From: Gemmata massiliana
Lineage (GTDB): Bacteria > Planctomycetota > Planctomycetia > Gemmatales > Gemmataceae
Reading direction: 5' to 3'
Assembly: GCA_000531095.1 (NCBI GenBank)
Contig: HG799468.1
Location: 52,060-116,059, forward strand
Length of the DNA: 64,000 nt
Positions 24,414-37,680 of the stretch are shown here, one piece after another (positions within the stretch are counted from its first letter, which is position 1; each line of letters starts with the position of its first letter). Made by a program: the position numbers and the translations under genes. Under the pieces are notes generated by a model. The model saw nothing but the letters and a program-made list of their open reading frames with translations, was not told where the DNA came from and did no database searches.

Positions 24414-27400
24414 TTACCGGCGCATCACTGCTTCGTCGTGGTTGAACAGCACGTTCGCCAGCACCGTGGCGGCTGCGAGGTCCGCAACGGGTAGCATCAC
24501 GTCAACGGGCTTCTCCCCGACGCCGAGTAGCTTCTTCGCCGCGGTCGTGTCTTTCTCGAAGAGTGCCTTCTGCTCCGCGAACAGTTTCGCCAGAACCGCG
24601 CGCTCCTTGTCGCTCGGCGTGCGGCCCGTCACGAGGCGGAACGTCCACGCTGAGCGCTCCTCCGCAGTCGCCCCGCCCTCCTTCAGCGCCCGCTGACCGA
24701 CGAACCGCGCGGCCTCCACGAACTGGACGTCGTTGAGCAGCACGAGCGCCTGGAGCGGCGTACTCGTACTCTGCCGCTTCACGGAACAGACGCTCCGGTC
24801 GGCTGCGTCGAACGTCGTCATGGACGGAGGGGGCACGGTACGCTTCCAGAACGTGTACAGGCTGCGGCGGTACAAGTCGTCCCCCCTACTCTGCTCGTAA
24901 CGCGGCCGGCCCATCGCGATCTCCTCCCACAGTCCCGCGGGCTGGTACGGCCGGACGCTCGGTCCACCGAGTTTCTCCGCGAGTAGCCCGCTCGACGCGA
25001 GCGCCTGGTCGCGGAGCATTTCAGCCGTGAGCCGCTTCACCGGACCCCGCGCGAGTAGTTCGTTGTGCGGGTCGCGTGCCAGAACATCGGGCGCTGTTTT
25101 TGACGACTGGCAGTAGGTGGCCGACAGCGCCATCATTTTGAGGAGCCGCTTCTGGTCCCAACCGGTGCGGACGAACTCGCGGGCCAGCCAGTCGAGCAAT
25201 TCGGGATGCGTGGGGCGGGCACCCTGGGTACCGAAGTTGTCCGCGGTTTCGACCAGCCCGCGCCCGAACATCAGTTGCCACGAGCGGTTCACCGTGACGC
25301 GGGCCATGAGCGGGTTTTCAGGGTCCGTGAGCCACTTCGTCAGCCCAAGGCGGTTCCGCGGCGCGCCTTTTGGGAACGGCGGCAGTACCTTCGGCGTGTC
25401 CGCGGTCACCTTTTCGCCGAGGGAGTCGTAAGCCCCGCGCTTGAGGACGTGTGCGGGTTTCGGTACCGGCATCTCGTCCATCACCATGATTTCGGTGATC
25501 GGGTTGACGAACGCGGTGTACGCCTTCCGCGCCGCGCGAAGTTCTTCCGCGGCCTTCTTCGATGGCTCGTGAATCGCGGAAGCGAAATACTCGAAAAGGG
25601 CCTCGTCGCCCGGCTCGCTGATGATTTCGGCGGCCGTCAGAGCACGGTTGTAAACGCGGAACTCGTCAACCAGACCGCCCTTGAAGCCGTTGTCGCGGAA
25701 GCGGTAGCCGACCGCGAGGTTCGGTTCACCGCCGTAGGTGATGTCCTTGGTCAACTTGTCGCGGATCGCATCCACTTCGAGCGGTTTGCCGTCGAGGTAC
25801 AGCTTCACGCCGGCCGCGGTACTGGACCCGTCGTAGGTCGCGGTAATGTGCGCCCACGCGCCCGTGGGGATCGCGGTCTTGCTCCGCACCTTCAGCGAGT
25901 TGCCGGGCCACATATGGTGCAGCCCGAATGCGACTTTCCCGTCTTCCAACAGGAGTTCGTACCCGCGGCTGCCGGCGTCGATCGGCGCCTGGCTGTGGTG
26001 AACCAGCACCGCACGCGGTGTCGGTGCCGGTGCCCTCACCCAGAGGCTCAAGGTGAACGGATCGTCGCGGGTGAAGTGCCCGACGCCGGGGAACGTGAAC
26101 CCGTTTTCGCCGGTGAGTTCGACCGCTTGGCCGAACTTTCCGGGCGCCAGTTTCGGCCCCTCGACGGCGCTCCCCGGTGTCTTCGCGTCTGCCCCGTTCT
26201 CGACTTTACCGGCCTTGATGTCGTCGAACGAGTACGACCCGACCAGTCCCGGCACGTCGAGTTTCGCCGGGCGCTTCCACTTCGCGAACTCGGCCCGTGC
26301 GACCCCGCGAGCCTTCACCAGAGCGTCTCGTTTCGCTCCAACTGCGGCACGCAATTCGGCCAATTTCGTGTCCTGGGCCTCGGTGGTGAGCAGGAGGGCC
26401 GGTACCGGCGTGGCCGCGGTAAAGTAACTCGTCTGGCCGCTCTCGTCGATGTTCTGGAAGAACGCGAACAGCGAATAGTAGTCCTTTTGCGAGACGGGAT
26501 CGAACTTGTGGTCGTGGCACCGGCTGCACTCGAGCGTCAGTCCGAGGAACGCGGTTCCGAACGTGGTCGTGCGGTCGTTCACGTAGGCCACGCGGAACTC
26601 TTCTTCGACGATCCCGCCCTCCTCGTTCTGCATGTGCAACCGGTTGAACGCGGTCGCTAGGCGCTGGTCCTTGGTGGCATTGGGGAGCAGGTCGCCGGCG
26701 AGTTGCCAGGTGACAAAATCGTTGAACGGCAGGTTGCGGTTGTACGCGGAGATGACCCAGTCGCGGTACGGCCATACGGGGCGCGCGCGGTCCATCTGGT
26801 AGCCGTGCGTGTCGGCGAAGCGGGCGATATCGAGCCACTCGCCAGCCATCCGCTCGCCGTACCGGGGGGAGGCCAGGAGCCGGTCCACGACCTTCTCGTA
26901 AGCATTTGGCCCATCGTCCTTCAGAAAGGCGTCGAGCTCCGCGATGGTTGGAGGTAATCCGGTGAGGTCGAAGGTGACACGGCGCAGTAACCGCTCCTCG
27001 TCCGCAGGGGCCGCGGGGTTCAGGCCCTCGCGCGCGAGCCGGGACAGCACGAATGCGTCGATCGGGTTCGTGACCCGCTGCGGGTTCTTCAGCCCGATCG
27101 GGACTTCCGGTTTCGTCACCGGGTCGAAGGCCCAGTGCGTGGACCACTTCGCGCCCTGTTCCACCCAGCGCGTGAGCGCGTCGATCTGCTGGGCCGAGAG
27201 TTTCGTAATAACTTCGTATAGCATACATTATACGAAGTTAGGGTCGGTGCTCGTGATGCGCTCGACGAGAGAACTTTCCTTCGGCTTGCCGGGAACGATG
27301 ACGCCGCGATCAAAGGGCGAGGCTTTGTCATCGAGGCGGAGTTTCGCCTTGCGCGAGTTCGCGTCCGGGCCGTGGCACTGGAAGCAGTAGTCCGAGAGCA

Positions 27401-27500
27401 CCGGGAGCACGTCGCGACTGAAATCGACCGGGGTCGGCTCGGCCGCCTGAGCAACGGGGGCGAGTGCGAGCACCAGCACGAGACACGCGATTCGGAGCAT
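24414..27500 (-). CDS. DUF1549/DUF1553 cytochrome-c-like protein with LamG insert, interrupted by loxP sequence
   Basis: Normally one exported protein: signal peptide (IACLVLVLALAPVAQAA), a planctomycete cytochrome c module with heme motif CFQCH, DUF1549 (FDLTGLPPT, LLASPRYGERMAGEWLDIARFADTHG), a LamG/concanavalin-like insert (GLVGSYSFDD... LVDEFRVYNRALTAAEI), then DUF1553 (NRLGLTKWLTDPENPLMARVTVNRSWQLMFGRGLVETADNFG). The frame is interrupted at 27208-27240 by loxP bases that create an in-frame TAA (27228-27230) and replace the short stretch between SLVERITSTDP and KLSAQQIDALTRWVEQGA. That stretch normally carries the 'MPPP' heme-ligand motif. Both sides are in the same frame, so the real gene is probably intact. 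Start ATG 27500. Confidence 0.9.
27208..27240. other. Phage P1 loxP sequence (33/34 bases), probable library linker artefact
   Basis: Two 13-bp inverted arms (ATAACTTCGTATA and its complement, the second lacking its final base) flank the asymmetric 8-bp core GCATACAT, which is loxP read on the reverse strand. It lies inside a conserved coding sequence, replaces codons and introduces a stop. Circularising mate-pair/paired-end libraries use loxP linkers, so this is most likely unremoved linker and not a native site. Confidence 0.95.
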
Positions 27501-27589
27501 GGGGCATCCCGGCGGCACAACGGAGAGGGAGCGCGACGTTATTGTGCGGGCGTTCGGCGCGGGCGCGGACCTATCCGGCCCGCGCCCGC

Positions 27590-32451: not shown

Positions 32452-34782
32452 CTACTGCGGGCGCGATTCGCCCGCGCCCGTGAGTTCAAGCAGTGGAAGG
32501 GCGTGCGAAGTGCGGCCGATCTCGATGCGGCTACTCGTCGTCTCCAGGTTCGCGTAACACGTCCCGTCTGCCATGAGGTTCCAACTCCGGCAGACGCCGT
32601 TCGCGCGCTCCCAAAACACGCTCGGTTCGGTGTACGCGGCAACGGTCAGTTCCTTCCCGCGCCAGTGGAACCGATAAACGGGCGAACCCCACGGCAGTTC
32701 GCTAACCTTCTCCGCGCCGTTGTTGTTGAGGAACTCGGTCACCAGACTCAACGGCACCTGCTGGTCCGCGGACCACGAGTTGTAGGCGCTGTCGTGATAA
32801 ACGGATTCGTTGCTGGCCGCGACGTAGAGTTCCTTGAAGCAGATCTCATCGCCGCCCGTTTCAACGACCCACGTTAAGTAATCCCGCAACGTGCGCTCGT
32901 CCGAAACGCCCGCTTTTTGCAGCACGCACACCCACCGGAGCGCCAACCCGGGCCACTCGTTGCGGTGCGCCTGCCACGCTTGCGCAACGCGCTCCGAGTG
33001 CGTTTCCAGGTGCATGATTTCGGCGTTGCGGTCGTGACTATGGCGCGAAAGAGCGAGCACCGTTAGCCCGTTCGCGTGGTAGTCGCGAAGAGTGCGTAAC
33101 CGGTCGGCCGAGTCCGCGTGCCCGAGTTTGTAGCCGTTAGTAATCATCACGATCTTGCGGAAGTGCTTCGCGCCGACACGCATGATTTCCAGCAATTTGT
33201 GATGAGCAAGTAATATCGGTTCGCCACCGCCGGTAATCACGAGGCGCTCCGCCCCTCGCGCACGACTCTCCGCGCACGCGGCTTCCAGGCGCGGTAGCAC
33301 GAGCCGGCCCTGGTCCTGCTCATCGGAAATCGACGAATGCGAGAAGCAGAAGTCGCACTTCGCCTGGCACGCACTGGCAATCGGCAGCACCGAGAGCGAG
33401 CGCGGGTTCACGTCACCCCAAGCGCAGAGGTTCCCGTTCAGTTCCAGTGACGTCGCGAGGGCGTCTTCGATGCGAAGTTCGGTCAGCGTGTCGTCCAAGA
33501 GCCGCTCAACGCGGACATAATTCTGCTCGATGTACTCACCCAACCCGGTGCGCGCGTTGGCGCGGAGTTCGTGACGCGCGACGCGCGTGTGAAGCACGAT
33601 CGCACGGTCGCGTGCGGTCGTCTTTTGGAGCAAGCGCCTCACCTTGGCGAACCCGATGTCGAGTTGATCGTTCGCGAGCAGGTAGAACCGCTCGGGGTAC
33701 GTGGATTCCGGGATGTTCGCCTTGCTGTAGGTGCGCGAATACTTGTCGTACCCGCGTGCGAAATTCGACAGCGCGGTGACATGATACCGGTCCACAACTT
33801 CGGTTTCCGCGCCCGCGTTGGTCTCGTGGAGGCACGAAACGATGGAGAGCGTGTTGCTCGTCCCGTACACGTCGCCCGGCACAGCCAGCACGCCGCGCTC
33901 CAGCAGTTCCGTTTGCGGCACGTTGACAACAGACAGATACCCCGATTCGGGCGGCATCCAGTTCGCGTCGAACGCACGAATGTTCGCCGCAAGCCGCTCC
34001 CACCGCGAGCGGAAAATCGAGCGCTGCGTTCGCGGGAAACGCCTGTACCGCGTGAGCAGCACCTTCGCTTGGTCCGATTCGCGTGTATCCGCGGAAGGTA
34101 GTGCGAAGCGCTCGGGAGCGACCACGAACCCGGACACGAGCGGCGCCAGATGGCTCTTCGACAGGGAGTAACAGACGATGACCTGGTTCGTGTCGATGAG
34201 TGGCTGAAGGCGTGCAGAGTTGGCGTAGTCGTAAACGCGGTCGATCACCAGAAGCCGGTTCGCGTCCGCGCTCAGCCACCGGAGCAGCACCGATATCTCG
34301 TGCTCGGTCAGGTCGCGGCCGAGCGGCGTGTGCGGGGCCGTGAGGAGCACGGTGTTCGTGCGGAAGGCACGTTCGATGTCAAATTCGGGGAGCGTCGGGT
34401 ACGTCTCGATTCGCGCCCCGGCCTTCTGCGCGATCATCAGATAGACCGGGTACACGTCCGCGGGCACCGAAATCACGCGATCGTTCAGCGGGCCGGCGAA
34501 AAGCTTGAAAAGCGAGTCACGCACGCCGACCGAGCGGAAACTGTGCGTGAACCAGACGTTGAGGTATTTGCGCCAGGCGTGTTCGAGTGTGATTTCCGGC
34601 GGAGATGTGAAATCGAAGTCGCGTGCGATGGCTTTGACGGGGTTCAAACATTCCAGTCGTAGTAACCCCGGTTGCCGCGCAAGGGCACCAGCAGCAAACG
34701 CCTTGAACGCCACGAACGCGGGGCTGACTTCGCGTGTGAGTTCGGACACGGTTGGCTCTTTCTGAAATGGGCTCGAACACAT
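32452..34782 (-). CDS. Fusion of a PLP-dependent aminotransferase domain and a radical SAM domain
   Basis: About 776 aa from ATG 34782 (GTG 34749 is an alternative). Residues ~60-330 look like a fold-type I aminotransferase: LLTAPHTPLG, the Asp-x-x-Tyr motif (LLVIDRVYDYAN) and the Schiff-base Lys motif (IVCYSLSKSHLAPLVSGFVVAPERFAL, Lys ~209). Residues ~460-720 are a radical SAM domain: cluster motif CQAKCDFCF (CX3CX2C, ~472-479), GGGEP (~518) and MITNGYKLG. A late Cys pair (GVCRSWNLMADGTCYAN) could mark a further cluster or metal site. A middle segment of about 130 aa is unassigned. I know no named enzyme with this order of domains. It is divergent from the deacetylase at 34980, with no clear biosynthetic partners nearby. 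Confidence 0.85.
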   Translation of the reverse strand: MCSSPFQKEPTVSELTREVSPAFVAFKAFAAGALARQPGLLRLECLNPVKAIARDFDFTSPPEITLEHAWRKYLNVWFTHSFRSVGVRDSLFKLFAGPLNDRVISVPADVYPVYLMIAQKAGARIETYPTLPEFDIERAFRTNTVLLTAPHTPLGRDLTEHEISVLLRWLSADANRLLVIDRVYDYANSARLQPLIDTNQVIVCYSLSKSHLAPLVSGFVVAPERFALPSADTRESDQAKVLLTRYRRFPRTQRSIFRSRWERLAANIRAFDANWMPPESGYLSVVNVPQTELLERGVLAVPGDVYGTSNTLSIVSCLHETNAGAETEVVDRYHVTALSNFARGYDKYSRTYSKANIPESTYPERFYLLANDQLDIGFAKVRRLLQKTTARDRAIVLHTRVARHELRANARTGLGEYIEQNYVRVERLLDDTLTELRIEDALATSLELNGNLCAWGDVNPRSLSVLPIASACQAKCDFCFSHSSISDEQDQGRLVLPRLEAACAESRARGAERLVITGGGEPILLAHHKLLEIMRVGAKHFRKIVMITNGYKLGHADSADRLRTLRDYHANGLTVLALSRHSHDRNAEIMHLETHSERVAQAWQAHRNEWPGLALRWVCVLQKAGVSDERTLRDYLTWVVETGGDEICFKELYVAASNESVYHDSAYNSWSADQQVPLSLVTEFLNNNGAEKVSELPWGSPVYRFHWRGKELTVAAYTEPSVFWERANGVCRSWNLMADGTCYANLETTSSRIEIGRTSHALPLLELTGAGESRPQ

Positions 34783-36711: not shown

Positions 36712-37680
36712 TCACGGAACCGTTGTCGCCCGCCGCTGCTCGTACCGAGTGGTCAGCTCTGCGGCCAACCGCGAGATGTGTGCCCTGCCCTTCGCGGGTC
36801 CGTCTTCGAGTTTCTCCAGCAAGCCCACTGGAATTGCACTTACGCCCGCGAACGCCCCGACCAGAGAACCAGCCATTGCCGCAACCGTGTCCGTGTCGTC
36901 GCCCAGACCGATTGCCCGAGCAATTGCCATCTCGAAGTCGCTCGGAGTAGCCGCAAAGCACGCGATCGCCGTAACGACCGAGCGGTGCGCGTGCAGCGTG
37001 CTCCCCAACCCCGACAGCGAATCACCCGGCTTCAACTTCGCGGCCATCGAAATGTGCCAGCGGAACTCTTCGGTGGTCGCGCGGGCAAGCAACTCGCGGT
37101 AGAATAGCTTGCGATTAAAGGTGGTCGTGTGCAGCGCCAGTGCGGTCGCGTGGGCGAGCACCTGTGCGCCCTCGATACCGAGCAGGTGCGCGTGTGTCGG
37201 CAGTGCGGAGAGCCGCGCCTGCTCTCTCAACTCGTCCACACTGTCTGCAAACAGCAACCCGACCGGGGCGACGCGCATCGCGGCTCCGTTACCGAACGAG
37301 CCGCCGGGGAAAATGTTCGACGCGAGTGTGCGGTAGTCTTCGCCGCGTGCCATTGCTTCGATGACGCGCCGCGCGCCCTGACCGTACCCGCGTTCCGGGT
37401 GATAGTTCTCCGCGAACGCCCGACACAGTCGCATTTCGTCAATGCGACCACACTCGACGAGCGTTTCCGCCACGCCGATCATCATTTCGGTGTCGTCGGT
37501 GTAAAAGAGTGCGTCGCCGGACGGGTTCGTGACGAGCTTATCGGGCGTGCCGAACTGGAAGAAGATGTCCGCGTGCGTCAGCCCCTCGTAGGGCGCGCCG
37601 ACCGCGTCCCCGACGGCCAAGCCGAGCAAGCACCCGGCGAAGCGGTCGGCGACAGAAGCGTGGCTCTCCCAGACTTTCAT
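36712..37680 (-). CDS. ADP-ribosylglycohydrolase family protein
   Basis: 322 aa ARH/DraG-type hydrolase that removes ADP-ribose from proteins or small molecules using two Mg2+. Diagnostic motifs: FAGCLLGLAVGDAVGAPYEG, the first metal motif FYTDDTEMMIGVAE, GSFGNGAAMRVAPVGLLF, and the second metal motif GLGDDTDTVAAMAGSLVGAFAG. All expected metal-binding Asp/Thr residues are present. It ends 5 bp from the convergent deacetylase gene and starts downstream of rpsT. Together with the macro-domain protein at 7826 it suggests active ADP-ribose signalling, but they are 30 kb apart and not an operon. Confidence 0.92.
   Translation of the reverse strand: MKVWESHASVADRFAGCLLGLAVGDAVGAPYEGLTHADIFFQFGTPDKLVTNPSGDALFYTDDTEMMIGVAETLVECGRIDEMRLCRAFAENYHPERGYGQGARRVIEAMARGEDYRTLASNIFPGGSFGNGAAMRVAPVGLLFADSVDELREQARLSALPTHAHLLGIEGAQVLAHATALALHTTTFNRKLFYRELLARATTEEFRWHISMAAKLKPGDSLSGLGSTLHAHRSVVTAIACFAATPSDFEMAIARAIGLGDDTDTVAAMAGSLVGAFAGVSAIPVGLLEKLEDGPAKGRAHISRLAAELTTRYEQRRATTVP

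What the first reader, a model, noticed from the sequence alone, without database searches (positions are those of the whole stretch)
32452..34782. Aminotransferase-radical SAM fusion enzyme
One ~776-aa chain joins a fold-type I PLP domain (Asp-x-x-Tyr and SLSKSHL Lys motif) to a radical SAM domain (CX3CX2C, GGGEP) with further late cysteines. PLP plus radical chemistry in one chain (as in lysine 2,3-aminomutase, but there in one active site) is rare; here two separate domains suggest sequential modification of one substrate, perhaps an amino acid or peptide. Both sets of key residues appear intact.
Basis: partly seen in the sequence, partly recalled or inferred. Interest (0 to 1): 0.78.

Follow-up and report, generated by a model that had tools for sequence, protein, structure and literature searches.

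The report
Fused aminotransferase–radical SAM enzyme, NAD-linked
A planctomycete gene really does weld a vitamin-B6-type enzyme to a radical-forming enzyme, and its unfused relatives in other bacteria are partner genes switched with the cell's NAD supply by a shared DNA operator, which points to an undescribed NAD-linked pathway whose chemistry is still unknown.

Summary
One intact minus-strand gene (34782/34749 to 32452) joins a fold-type I PLP domain to a radical SAM (rSAM) domain. It is not a misassembly: full-length fusions occur in five other Gemmataceae genomes and both halves are under purifying selection. Outside Gemmataceae the halves are separate, translationally coupled genes in the order rSAM–AT, opposite to the fusion. 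A methyltransferase often follows.

The unfused genes belong to an NAD-controlled set. Nine loci lie beside NAD-salvage or ADP-ribose genes (NrtR, NadV, NadM, NadE, KptA, NADAR, PARG, DraG). A palindrome TAGTGT-N7-ACACTA, between -35 and -10 hexamers, lies upstream of rSAM–AT in planctomycetes, an acidobacterium and a gammaproteobacterium, and upstream of NrtR or NAD operons in G332, G491 and G794. The Gemmata fusions lack NrtR and the box, so their link is by homology.

The rSAM core resembles viperin and MoaA and should carry one cluster; the late cysteines are not conserved. The PLP half keeps Lys, Asp and Tyr but lacks Asn194, Arg266 and Arg386 equivalents. Best model: rSAM makes a carbonyl on a nucleotide-like substrate, the PLP enzyme aminates it, the methyltransferase methylates it. 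Substrate and chemistry are inferred.

The parts
32452..34782 (-). AT-rSAM fusion gene, longest ATG reading (776 aa plus stop); the GTG at 34749 is the likelier start (765 aa)
   Evidence: start inferred from the first available start of orthologue L071 and an AAAGAG upstream
33814..34749 (-). Fold-type I PLP (class I/II aminotransferase-like) domain, residues 12-323
   Evidence: Pfam PF00155 E 1.1e-9; VIA-align Z 22-24 to class I/II aminotransferases over residues 1-323
34519..34527 (-). G86-V87-R88 of the SxGVR loop; G86 and R88 invariant
34231..34242 (-). D181-x-x-Y184, PLP N1 Asp and O3' Tyr equivalents
   Evidence: invariant in 18 homologues; aligned to D-x-x-Y of solved aminotransferases
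34156..34167 (-). S206-x-x-K209, PLP Schiff-base lysine
   Evidence: invariant in 18 homologues; aligned to SxSK of solved aminotransferases
33430..33792 (-). rSAM N-terminal extension, residues 331-451, invariant LSN and YxxxYxK; no Pfam match
   Evidence: confidently folded but its fold was barely tested
32506..33429 (-). radical SAM core plus degenerate C-terminal twitch/SPASM-like part, residues 452-759
   Evidence: Pfam PF04055; Z 19 to viperin-like, 18.8 to MoaA, 21 to GDGT-MAS
33346..33369 (-). C472-x3-C476-x2-C479, [4Fe-4S]/SAM cluster motif
   Evidence: invariant in 22 homologues
33217..33231 (-). GGGEP SAM-binding motif, residues 518-522
   Evidence: invariant
32926..32928 (-). C619, invariant barrel cysteine
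   Evidence: lies in a strand of the model
32839..32841 (-). C648, invariant barrel cysteine of the CFKELYV motif
   Evidence: lies in a strand of the model

Best explanation
The gene is the fused form of a two-enzyme module (rSAM enzyme plus fold-type I PLP enzyme, often with a SAM-dependent methyltransferase) that elsewhere belongs to the NrtR, ADP-ribose-sensing NAD+ regulon. Shown: the architecture, the intact rSAM motif and PLP Lys/Asp/Tyr, the translational coupling of the unfused genes, the methyltransferase linkage, NAD/ADP-ribose neighbours, and the shared operator in several phyla. Inferred: (1) the rSAM domain abstracts a hydrogen from a nucleotide-type substrate derived from NAD+ or ADP-ribose and leaves a carbonyl by dehydration or oxidation; (2) the PLP domain converts that carbonyl to an amine; (3) in species that have it, the methyltransferase N-methylates the amine. 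Fusion in Gemmataceae holds the first two steps together. In the regulon species the module would be switched on when NAD+ is broken down and ADP-ribose rises.
For: Both domains real, conserved and under purifying selection. Unfused relatives are rSAM-AT pairs with ATGA/GTGA overlaps (14/14), with a methyltransferase next in about half. NAD/ADP-ribose neighbours in 9 of 22 unfused loci: NrtR (L004-L007), NadV plus NadM-Nudix (L008, L012, L087), NadE plus NadM (L003), KptA, NADAR, PARG, DraG, macro, DUF4291. Operator TAGTGT-N7-ACACTA exact at -27 to -102 of rSAM in L004, L074-L077 and L088 (also L046), and before NAD/NrtR genes in L091 (same genome as L074), L092 and L097 (same genome as L088, in front of nrtR-nadA); at most 0.005 expected per locus, none in 600,929 bp of other loci. 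It sits inside TTGAC(A/T)-N17-TATnnT hexamers. A characterised NrtR box has the same N7 palindrome geometry and is released by ADP-ribose (PMC6800001). The rSAM core is closest among nucleotide enzymes to viperin and MoaA. The methyltransferase's best NCBIfam match is the daptide methyltransferase (93.7 bits, under the 175 cut-off), whose family, from my own knowledge, N-methylates an amine made by a PLP enzyme.
Against: No substrate or product is known. The PLP half lacks the Asn194, Arg266 and Arg386 equivalents, so it may not be an aminotransferase. The Gemmata fusion genomes tested have no NrtR and no operator, and the DraG gene near the window fusion is not linked to it: orthologues occur in six genus members without the fusion, and G026 has the fusion without it. 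Six unfused loci show neither NAD neighbours nor an operator. rSAM resemblance to viperin and MoaA is a fold-level match shared with peptide maturases such as SuiB (Z 19.1) and the lipid enzyme GDGT-MAS (Z 21.4).
Confidence: 0.4

Rival explanations
1. The PLP half is not a transaminase but a lyase, decarboxylase or cyclase-type fold-type I enzyme that works before or after the rSAM step on the same molecule.
For: Arg386, Arg266 and Asn194 equivalents are missing while Lys, Asp and Tyr stay. Weak profile matches include GntC cyclodehydratase, capreomycidine synthase VioD and CobD decarboxylase; GntC is among the structural matches (Z 22.5).
Against: Top structural matches are ordinary aminotransferases, tied in Z. 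A following methyltransferase fits a newly made amine.
Confidence: 0.3
2. It is a viperin-like antiviral module: the rSAM-AT(-MT) enzymes make a modified nucleotide that blocks phage replication, induced when phage or defence enzymes break down NAD+.
For: Weak pVip matches (E 1.9e-9), viperin-like core, control by an ADP-ribose-sensing repressor, conflict-type neighbours NADAR, DraG and KptA (compare PMC9503650), sparse patchy spread.
Against: Score far below the NCBIfam viperin cut-off (36.6 of 180 bits); a phage contig also carries the pair (L086); no known defence gene was recognised beside the Gemmata fusions.
Confidence: 0.15
3. A peptide- or protein-modifying pair (RiPP-like or residue modification), as the first reader thought possible.
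For: The rSAM core also resembles SuiB, anSME and EpeE; the methyltransferase is nearest the daptide type.
Against: No conserved auxiliary-cluster cysteines; no room for a precursor gene in L002 and L003, where neighbours overlap or abut; NAD regulon context.
Confidence: 0.13
4. Artefact: two genes joined by misassembly or a decaying pseudogene.
For: The window does contain an assembly artefact, a loxP sequence about 5 kb away.
Against: Same fusion in six genomes of three genera, no internal stops within the coding part, dN/dS well below 1.
Confidence: 0.01

Closest known systems
Viperin / prokaryotic viperin (pVip) and MoaA, nucleotide-acting radical SAM enzymes
   Same: CX3CX2C motif, barrel fold, best structural matches with known nucleotide substrates (Foldseek 1.7e-10 MoaA, 5e-9 viperin; Z 18.8-19.4)
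   Different: Only 25-37 bits to the family models, far below cut-offs; extra N-terminal domain; no MoaA auxiliary-cluster cysteines; partnered with a PLP enzyme
Class I/II (fold-type I) aminotransferases, PF00155
   Same: Fold (Z 22-24), Lys, DxxY, PxxPxG and PGxxFG-like framework
   Different: Asn194, Arg266 and Arg386 equivalents missing; an invariant SxGVR arginine instead; forms its own family
NrtR (Nudix-related) NAD regulon
   Same: NrtR genes beside or sharing a palindromic operator with rSAM-AT; N7 palindrome geometry as in the mycobacterial NrtR box (PMC6800001)
   Different: I found no description of rSAM-AT genes as members; operator sequence differs from the mycobacterial and streptococcal ones; binding not tested
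NAD+/ADP-ribose and ARG-centred conflict systems (Viruses 2022, PMC9503650)
   Same: Share DraG, NADAR, Macro, Nudix regulators, phosphatases, planctomycete hosts
   Different: A text search of that paper found no radical SAM enzyme and no aminotransferase
Sequential oxidation-transamination-methylation pathways (puromycin Pur10/Pur4/Pur5; daptides), from own knowledge
   Same: Same logic: carbonyl, then amine, then N-methyl
   Different: Oxidation there is not by a radical SAM enzyme; analogy only

Membership tests
Radical SAM superfamily (PF04055) | CX3CX2C plus barrel and GGE-type SAM motif, score over the curated cut-off | tested here: met
   32.2 bits against 29.5; motifs invariant; fold
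Viperin (NF038283 / pVip) | Score over the equivalog cut-off | tested here: not met
   36.6 bits against 180
MoaA (TIGR02666) | Score over the equivalog cut-off | tested here: not met
   27.4 bits against 284
MoaA (TIGR02666) | C-terminal three-cysteine auxiliary cluster | tested here: not met
   only C619 and C648 are invariant outside the rSAM motif; C731 and C742 vary
SPASM/twitch radical SAM enzymes | Conserved auxiliary-cluster cysteines | tested here: not met
   late cysteines not conserved in 22 homologues
Class I/II aminotransferases (PF00155) | Fold and curated score | tested here: met
   38.4 bits against 19.7; Z 22-24; the stand-alone homologue L006 scores 17.1, below cut-off
Class I/II aminotransferases (PF00155) | Lys258, Asp222, Tyr225 equivalents | tested here: met
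   K209, D181, Y184 invariant
Class I/II aminotransferases (PF00155) | Asn194, Arg266, Arg386 equivalents | tested here: not met
   NPxNPxG is xPxxPxG; the Arg of SK...GxRxG is absent in profile alignments; no Arg in the strand after PGxxFG; Arg386 inferred from position
Class I/II aminotransferases (PF00155) | Transaminase activity | not testable with these tools
   needs enzyme assay
NrtR regulon | Shared operator upstream of rSAM-AT and of NrtR/NAD operons in the same genome | tested here: met
   G332 (L074 and L091) and G794 (L088 and L097)
NrtR regulon | Operator or NrtR in the window's own genome | tested here: not met
   no NrtR_WHD match in G000, G009, G026, G094; no box near the fusion
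NrtR regulon | NrtR binding and ADP-ribose release | not testable with these tools
   needs gel shift or reporter assay
Lysine 2,3-aminomutase type (rSAM and PLP in one site) | PLP bound by the rSAM polypeptide in one active site | tested here: not met
   PLP lysine and rSAM cluster lie in separate domains that are separate genes in most relatives

The most novel reading that the evidence does not exclude
An undescribed ADP-ribose-responsive pathway in which a viperin/MoaA-like radical SAM enzyme, a divergent PLP enzyme and a methyltransferase remodel an NAD+-derived nucleotide into an amino (methylamino) nucleotide, acting as a signal, a salvage intermediate or an antiviral; the Gemmata gene is its fused, bifunctional form.
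Probability: 0.25. Interest if true: 0.88.

Novelty: new variant of a known kind. Interest (0 to 1): 0.64.

Why it matters
Radical SAM and PLP enzymes are often found in natural-product pathways, but I know of none in the NAD+ regulon. If the regulon membership holds, cells respond to NAD+ breakdown with a radical-plus-PLP pathway that I found described nowhere, alongside NAD salvage and ADP-ribose clean-up. The question becomes testable at once: the operator, the regulator and a one-polypeptide version of the enzyme pair are all in hand.

Tried and rejected
Misassembly or pseudogene: rejected. DraG in the window (36712-37680) as a functional partner: it looked promising because L070 has it next to the fusion, but co-occurrence fails. 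KptA as a phyletic partner: present in 13 of 15 rSAM-AT genomes and in 6 of 6 fusion genomes against 34 of 89 other Gemmataceae, but 17 of 19 genus members have it regardless, so no independent support there. Phage origin: no match with the fusion in phage genomes or viral contigs; with the rSAM profile one 465-kb viral contig carries rSAM plus AT. Known defence family: only sub-threshold pVip hits. An auxiliary Fe-S cluster from the late cysteines: rejected. Literature searches found no description of the rSAM-AT(-MT) module, but the library holds only open-licence papers; the 2012 NADAR paper is not held and I did not find the original NrtR regulon paper there, so prior mention cannot be excluded.

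Full report
Observation. The gene lies on the minus strand, 34782 to 32452, 776 codons; the conserved reading starts more probably at the GTG at 34749. Pfam finds Aminotran_1_2 (residues 101-313, E 1.1e-9) and Radical_SAM (468-586, E 1.5e-7), both above the curated cut-offs. The genome is a Gemmataceae-type planctomycete of 9.27 Mb (lineage inferred from gene content, names are not given by the tool). Full-length fusions occur in G009, G011, G026, G094 and G089 at 95, 87, 71, 59 and 56% identity, form one clade for both halves, and show dN/dS well below 1 in both halves, about 0.13-0.17 in most comparisons. It is a real, selected fusion.

Unfused relatives. A scan of 84,980 species genomes gave homologues in Verrucomicrobiota, Pseudomonadota, Acidobacteriota and Myxococcota. 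Plasmids of Embleya (Actinomycetota) carry them too, as do a planctomycete genus g41 ('Gimesia-like' is my guess), genome G794 from the class of Andreprevotia and relatives of Ralstonia. In all of these the halves are separate genes in the order rSAM then AT, so the fusion order (AT-rSAM) needed a rearrangement, not just loss of a stop. In 14 of 14 loci inspected the AT start overlaps the rSAM stop as ATGA or GTGA. A methyltransferase follows in about half. The family is sparse: 6 of 95 genomes of the window's family, 5 unfused pairs among 392 sampled planctomycetes, 2 of 321, 1 of 289 and 3 of 349 in other samples.

Active sites. Over 22 rSAM sequences the three cluster cysteines, GGGEP, and C619 and C648 (fusion numbering) are invariant. 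The later C731 and C742 are not, so an auxiliary cluster is unlikely. AlphaFold2 gives pLDDT 89.6 for this half and 87.2 for the whole. Its core matches GDGT-MAS (Z 21.4), viperin-like enzymes (19.4), SuiB (19.1) and MoaA (18.8), with MoaA first and viperin close behind by Foldseek. About 120 residues in front of the core (331-451) match no Pfam family. Over 18 PLP-domain sequences K209, D181, Y184, S206, G86 and R88 are invariant, but the positions of Asn194, Arg266 and Arg386 of aspartate aminotransferase are not kept (Arg386 judged by its place after the PGxxFG-like motif). The fold is clearly class I/II (Z 22-24). The usual alpha-carboxylate anchor is therefore missing, which argues against an ordinary amino-acid transaminase.

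Context. Nine of 22 unfused loci lie beside NAD or ADP-ribose genes. L002: NADAR, DUF4291, two DraG, DUF1152, KptA. L003: NadE, NadM-Nudix, DUF4291, KptA, macro. L004: NrtR. L005: NrtR and a weak DraG match. L006: NrtR, PARG, KptA, DraG, a DSP phosphatase. L007: NrtR, PARG, NADAR. L008, L012 and L087: NadM-Nudix and NadV. In G332 and G491, whose rSAM-AT operons stand apart, the same kind of cluster exists elsewhere in the genome: NADAR, KptA, an isochorismatase-family (nicotinamidase-like) gene, DraG, NrtR, NadE and NAPRT in G332; DraG, PARG, NrtR, DraG, KptA, phosphatase and NadV in G491.

Regulon. Upstream of the rSAM-AT operon in L074, L075, L076, L077, L004 and L088 there is an exact palindrome TAGTGT-N7-ACACTA (and in the short locus L046 as well), 27 to 102 bases before the rSAM start. 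The same box stands before the NAPRT-NadE-NrtR cluster of G332 (L091), before NrtR in G491 (L092), and 52 bases before nrtR-nadA in G794 (L097; the nadA name is from reading the sequence). Near matches (one or two mismatches) precede the NrtR operon of L007 and the rSAM gene of L009. Shuffles expect at most 0.005 exact boxes per locus, and 600,929 bases of other loci hold none. The box fills the spacer of TTGACA-N17-TATTAT in L088 and TTGACT-N17-TATCGT in L074, the place of a repressor operator. NrtR of Mycobacterium binds a palindrome with the same seven-base spacer and is released by ADP-ribose (PMC6800001). So rSAM-AT belongs to an NrtR-type regulon in at least three phyla, by sequence evidence; binding was not tested.

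Limits for the window. The fusion genomes tested have no NrtR and no box near the fusion. The nearby DraG gene (36712-37680) is not a partner by co-occurrence. The NAD link of the Gemmata protein therefore rests on homology.

Mechanism. Best guess: carbonyl formation by the rSAM domain on an NAD- or ADP-ribose-derived nucleotide, amination by the PLP domain, N-methylation by the methyltransferase where present. The methyltransferase's nearest named family is the daptide methyltransferase, below its cut-off. None of the chemistry is shown. The main rival is a PLP lyase or cyclase step in place of transamination.

Novelty. I found no description of this module in the open-licence library. A text search of PMC9503650, the broadest survey of NAD-ADP-ribose systems I found there, gave no radical SAM enzyme and no aminotransferase. 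Because key subscription papers were not readable, novelty is stated with reserve.

Noticed in passing
window 27208-27241: A loxP sequence (one mismatch to ATAACTTCGTATA-N8-TATACGAAGTTAT) lies where a DUF1549-type gene is split into two ORFs (24414-27224 and 27228-27518, minus strand); most likely a sequencing-library linker left in the assembly.
   Followed up: yes
window 36712-37680: ADP-ribosylglycohydrolase (DraG family, E 7.8e-63) near rpsB/tsf-like genes; has orthologues in genus members without the fusion.
   Followed up: yes
L086:9983-12219: A 465-kb viral contig carries an adjacent rSAM-AT pair with a GTGA overlap, and a class I lysyl-tRNA synthetase nearby.
   Followed up: partly
L002:4143-4481, L003:5628-5957: A 113-aa protein with no Pfam or NCBIfam match sits next to DUF4291 in two phyla, with KptA in the same loci.
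   Followed up: no
L091:8378-15505: A compact NAD/ADP-ribose cluster (NADAR, KptA, isochorismatase-like, DraG, NrtR, NadE, NAPRT) with a TAGTGT-N7-ACACTA box in planctomycete G332.
   Followed up: partly
L013 (Minicystis rosea), L010 (Pleionea): Very divergent rSAM-AT pairs on long branches; the Pleionea AT is short (288 aa) and may have changed function.
   Followed up: no
BFVD UPI001E6AD6B5, UPI001CE4C174: Two unnamed viral proteins are the best structural matches of the rSAM half among viral models (E 3e-11, 1e-9); not identified.
   Followed up: no
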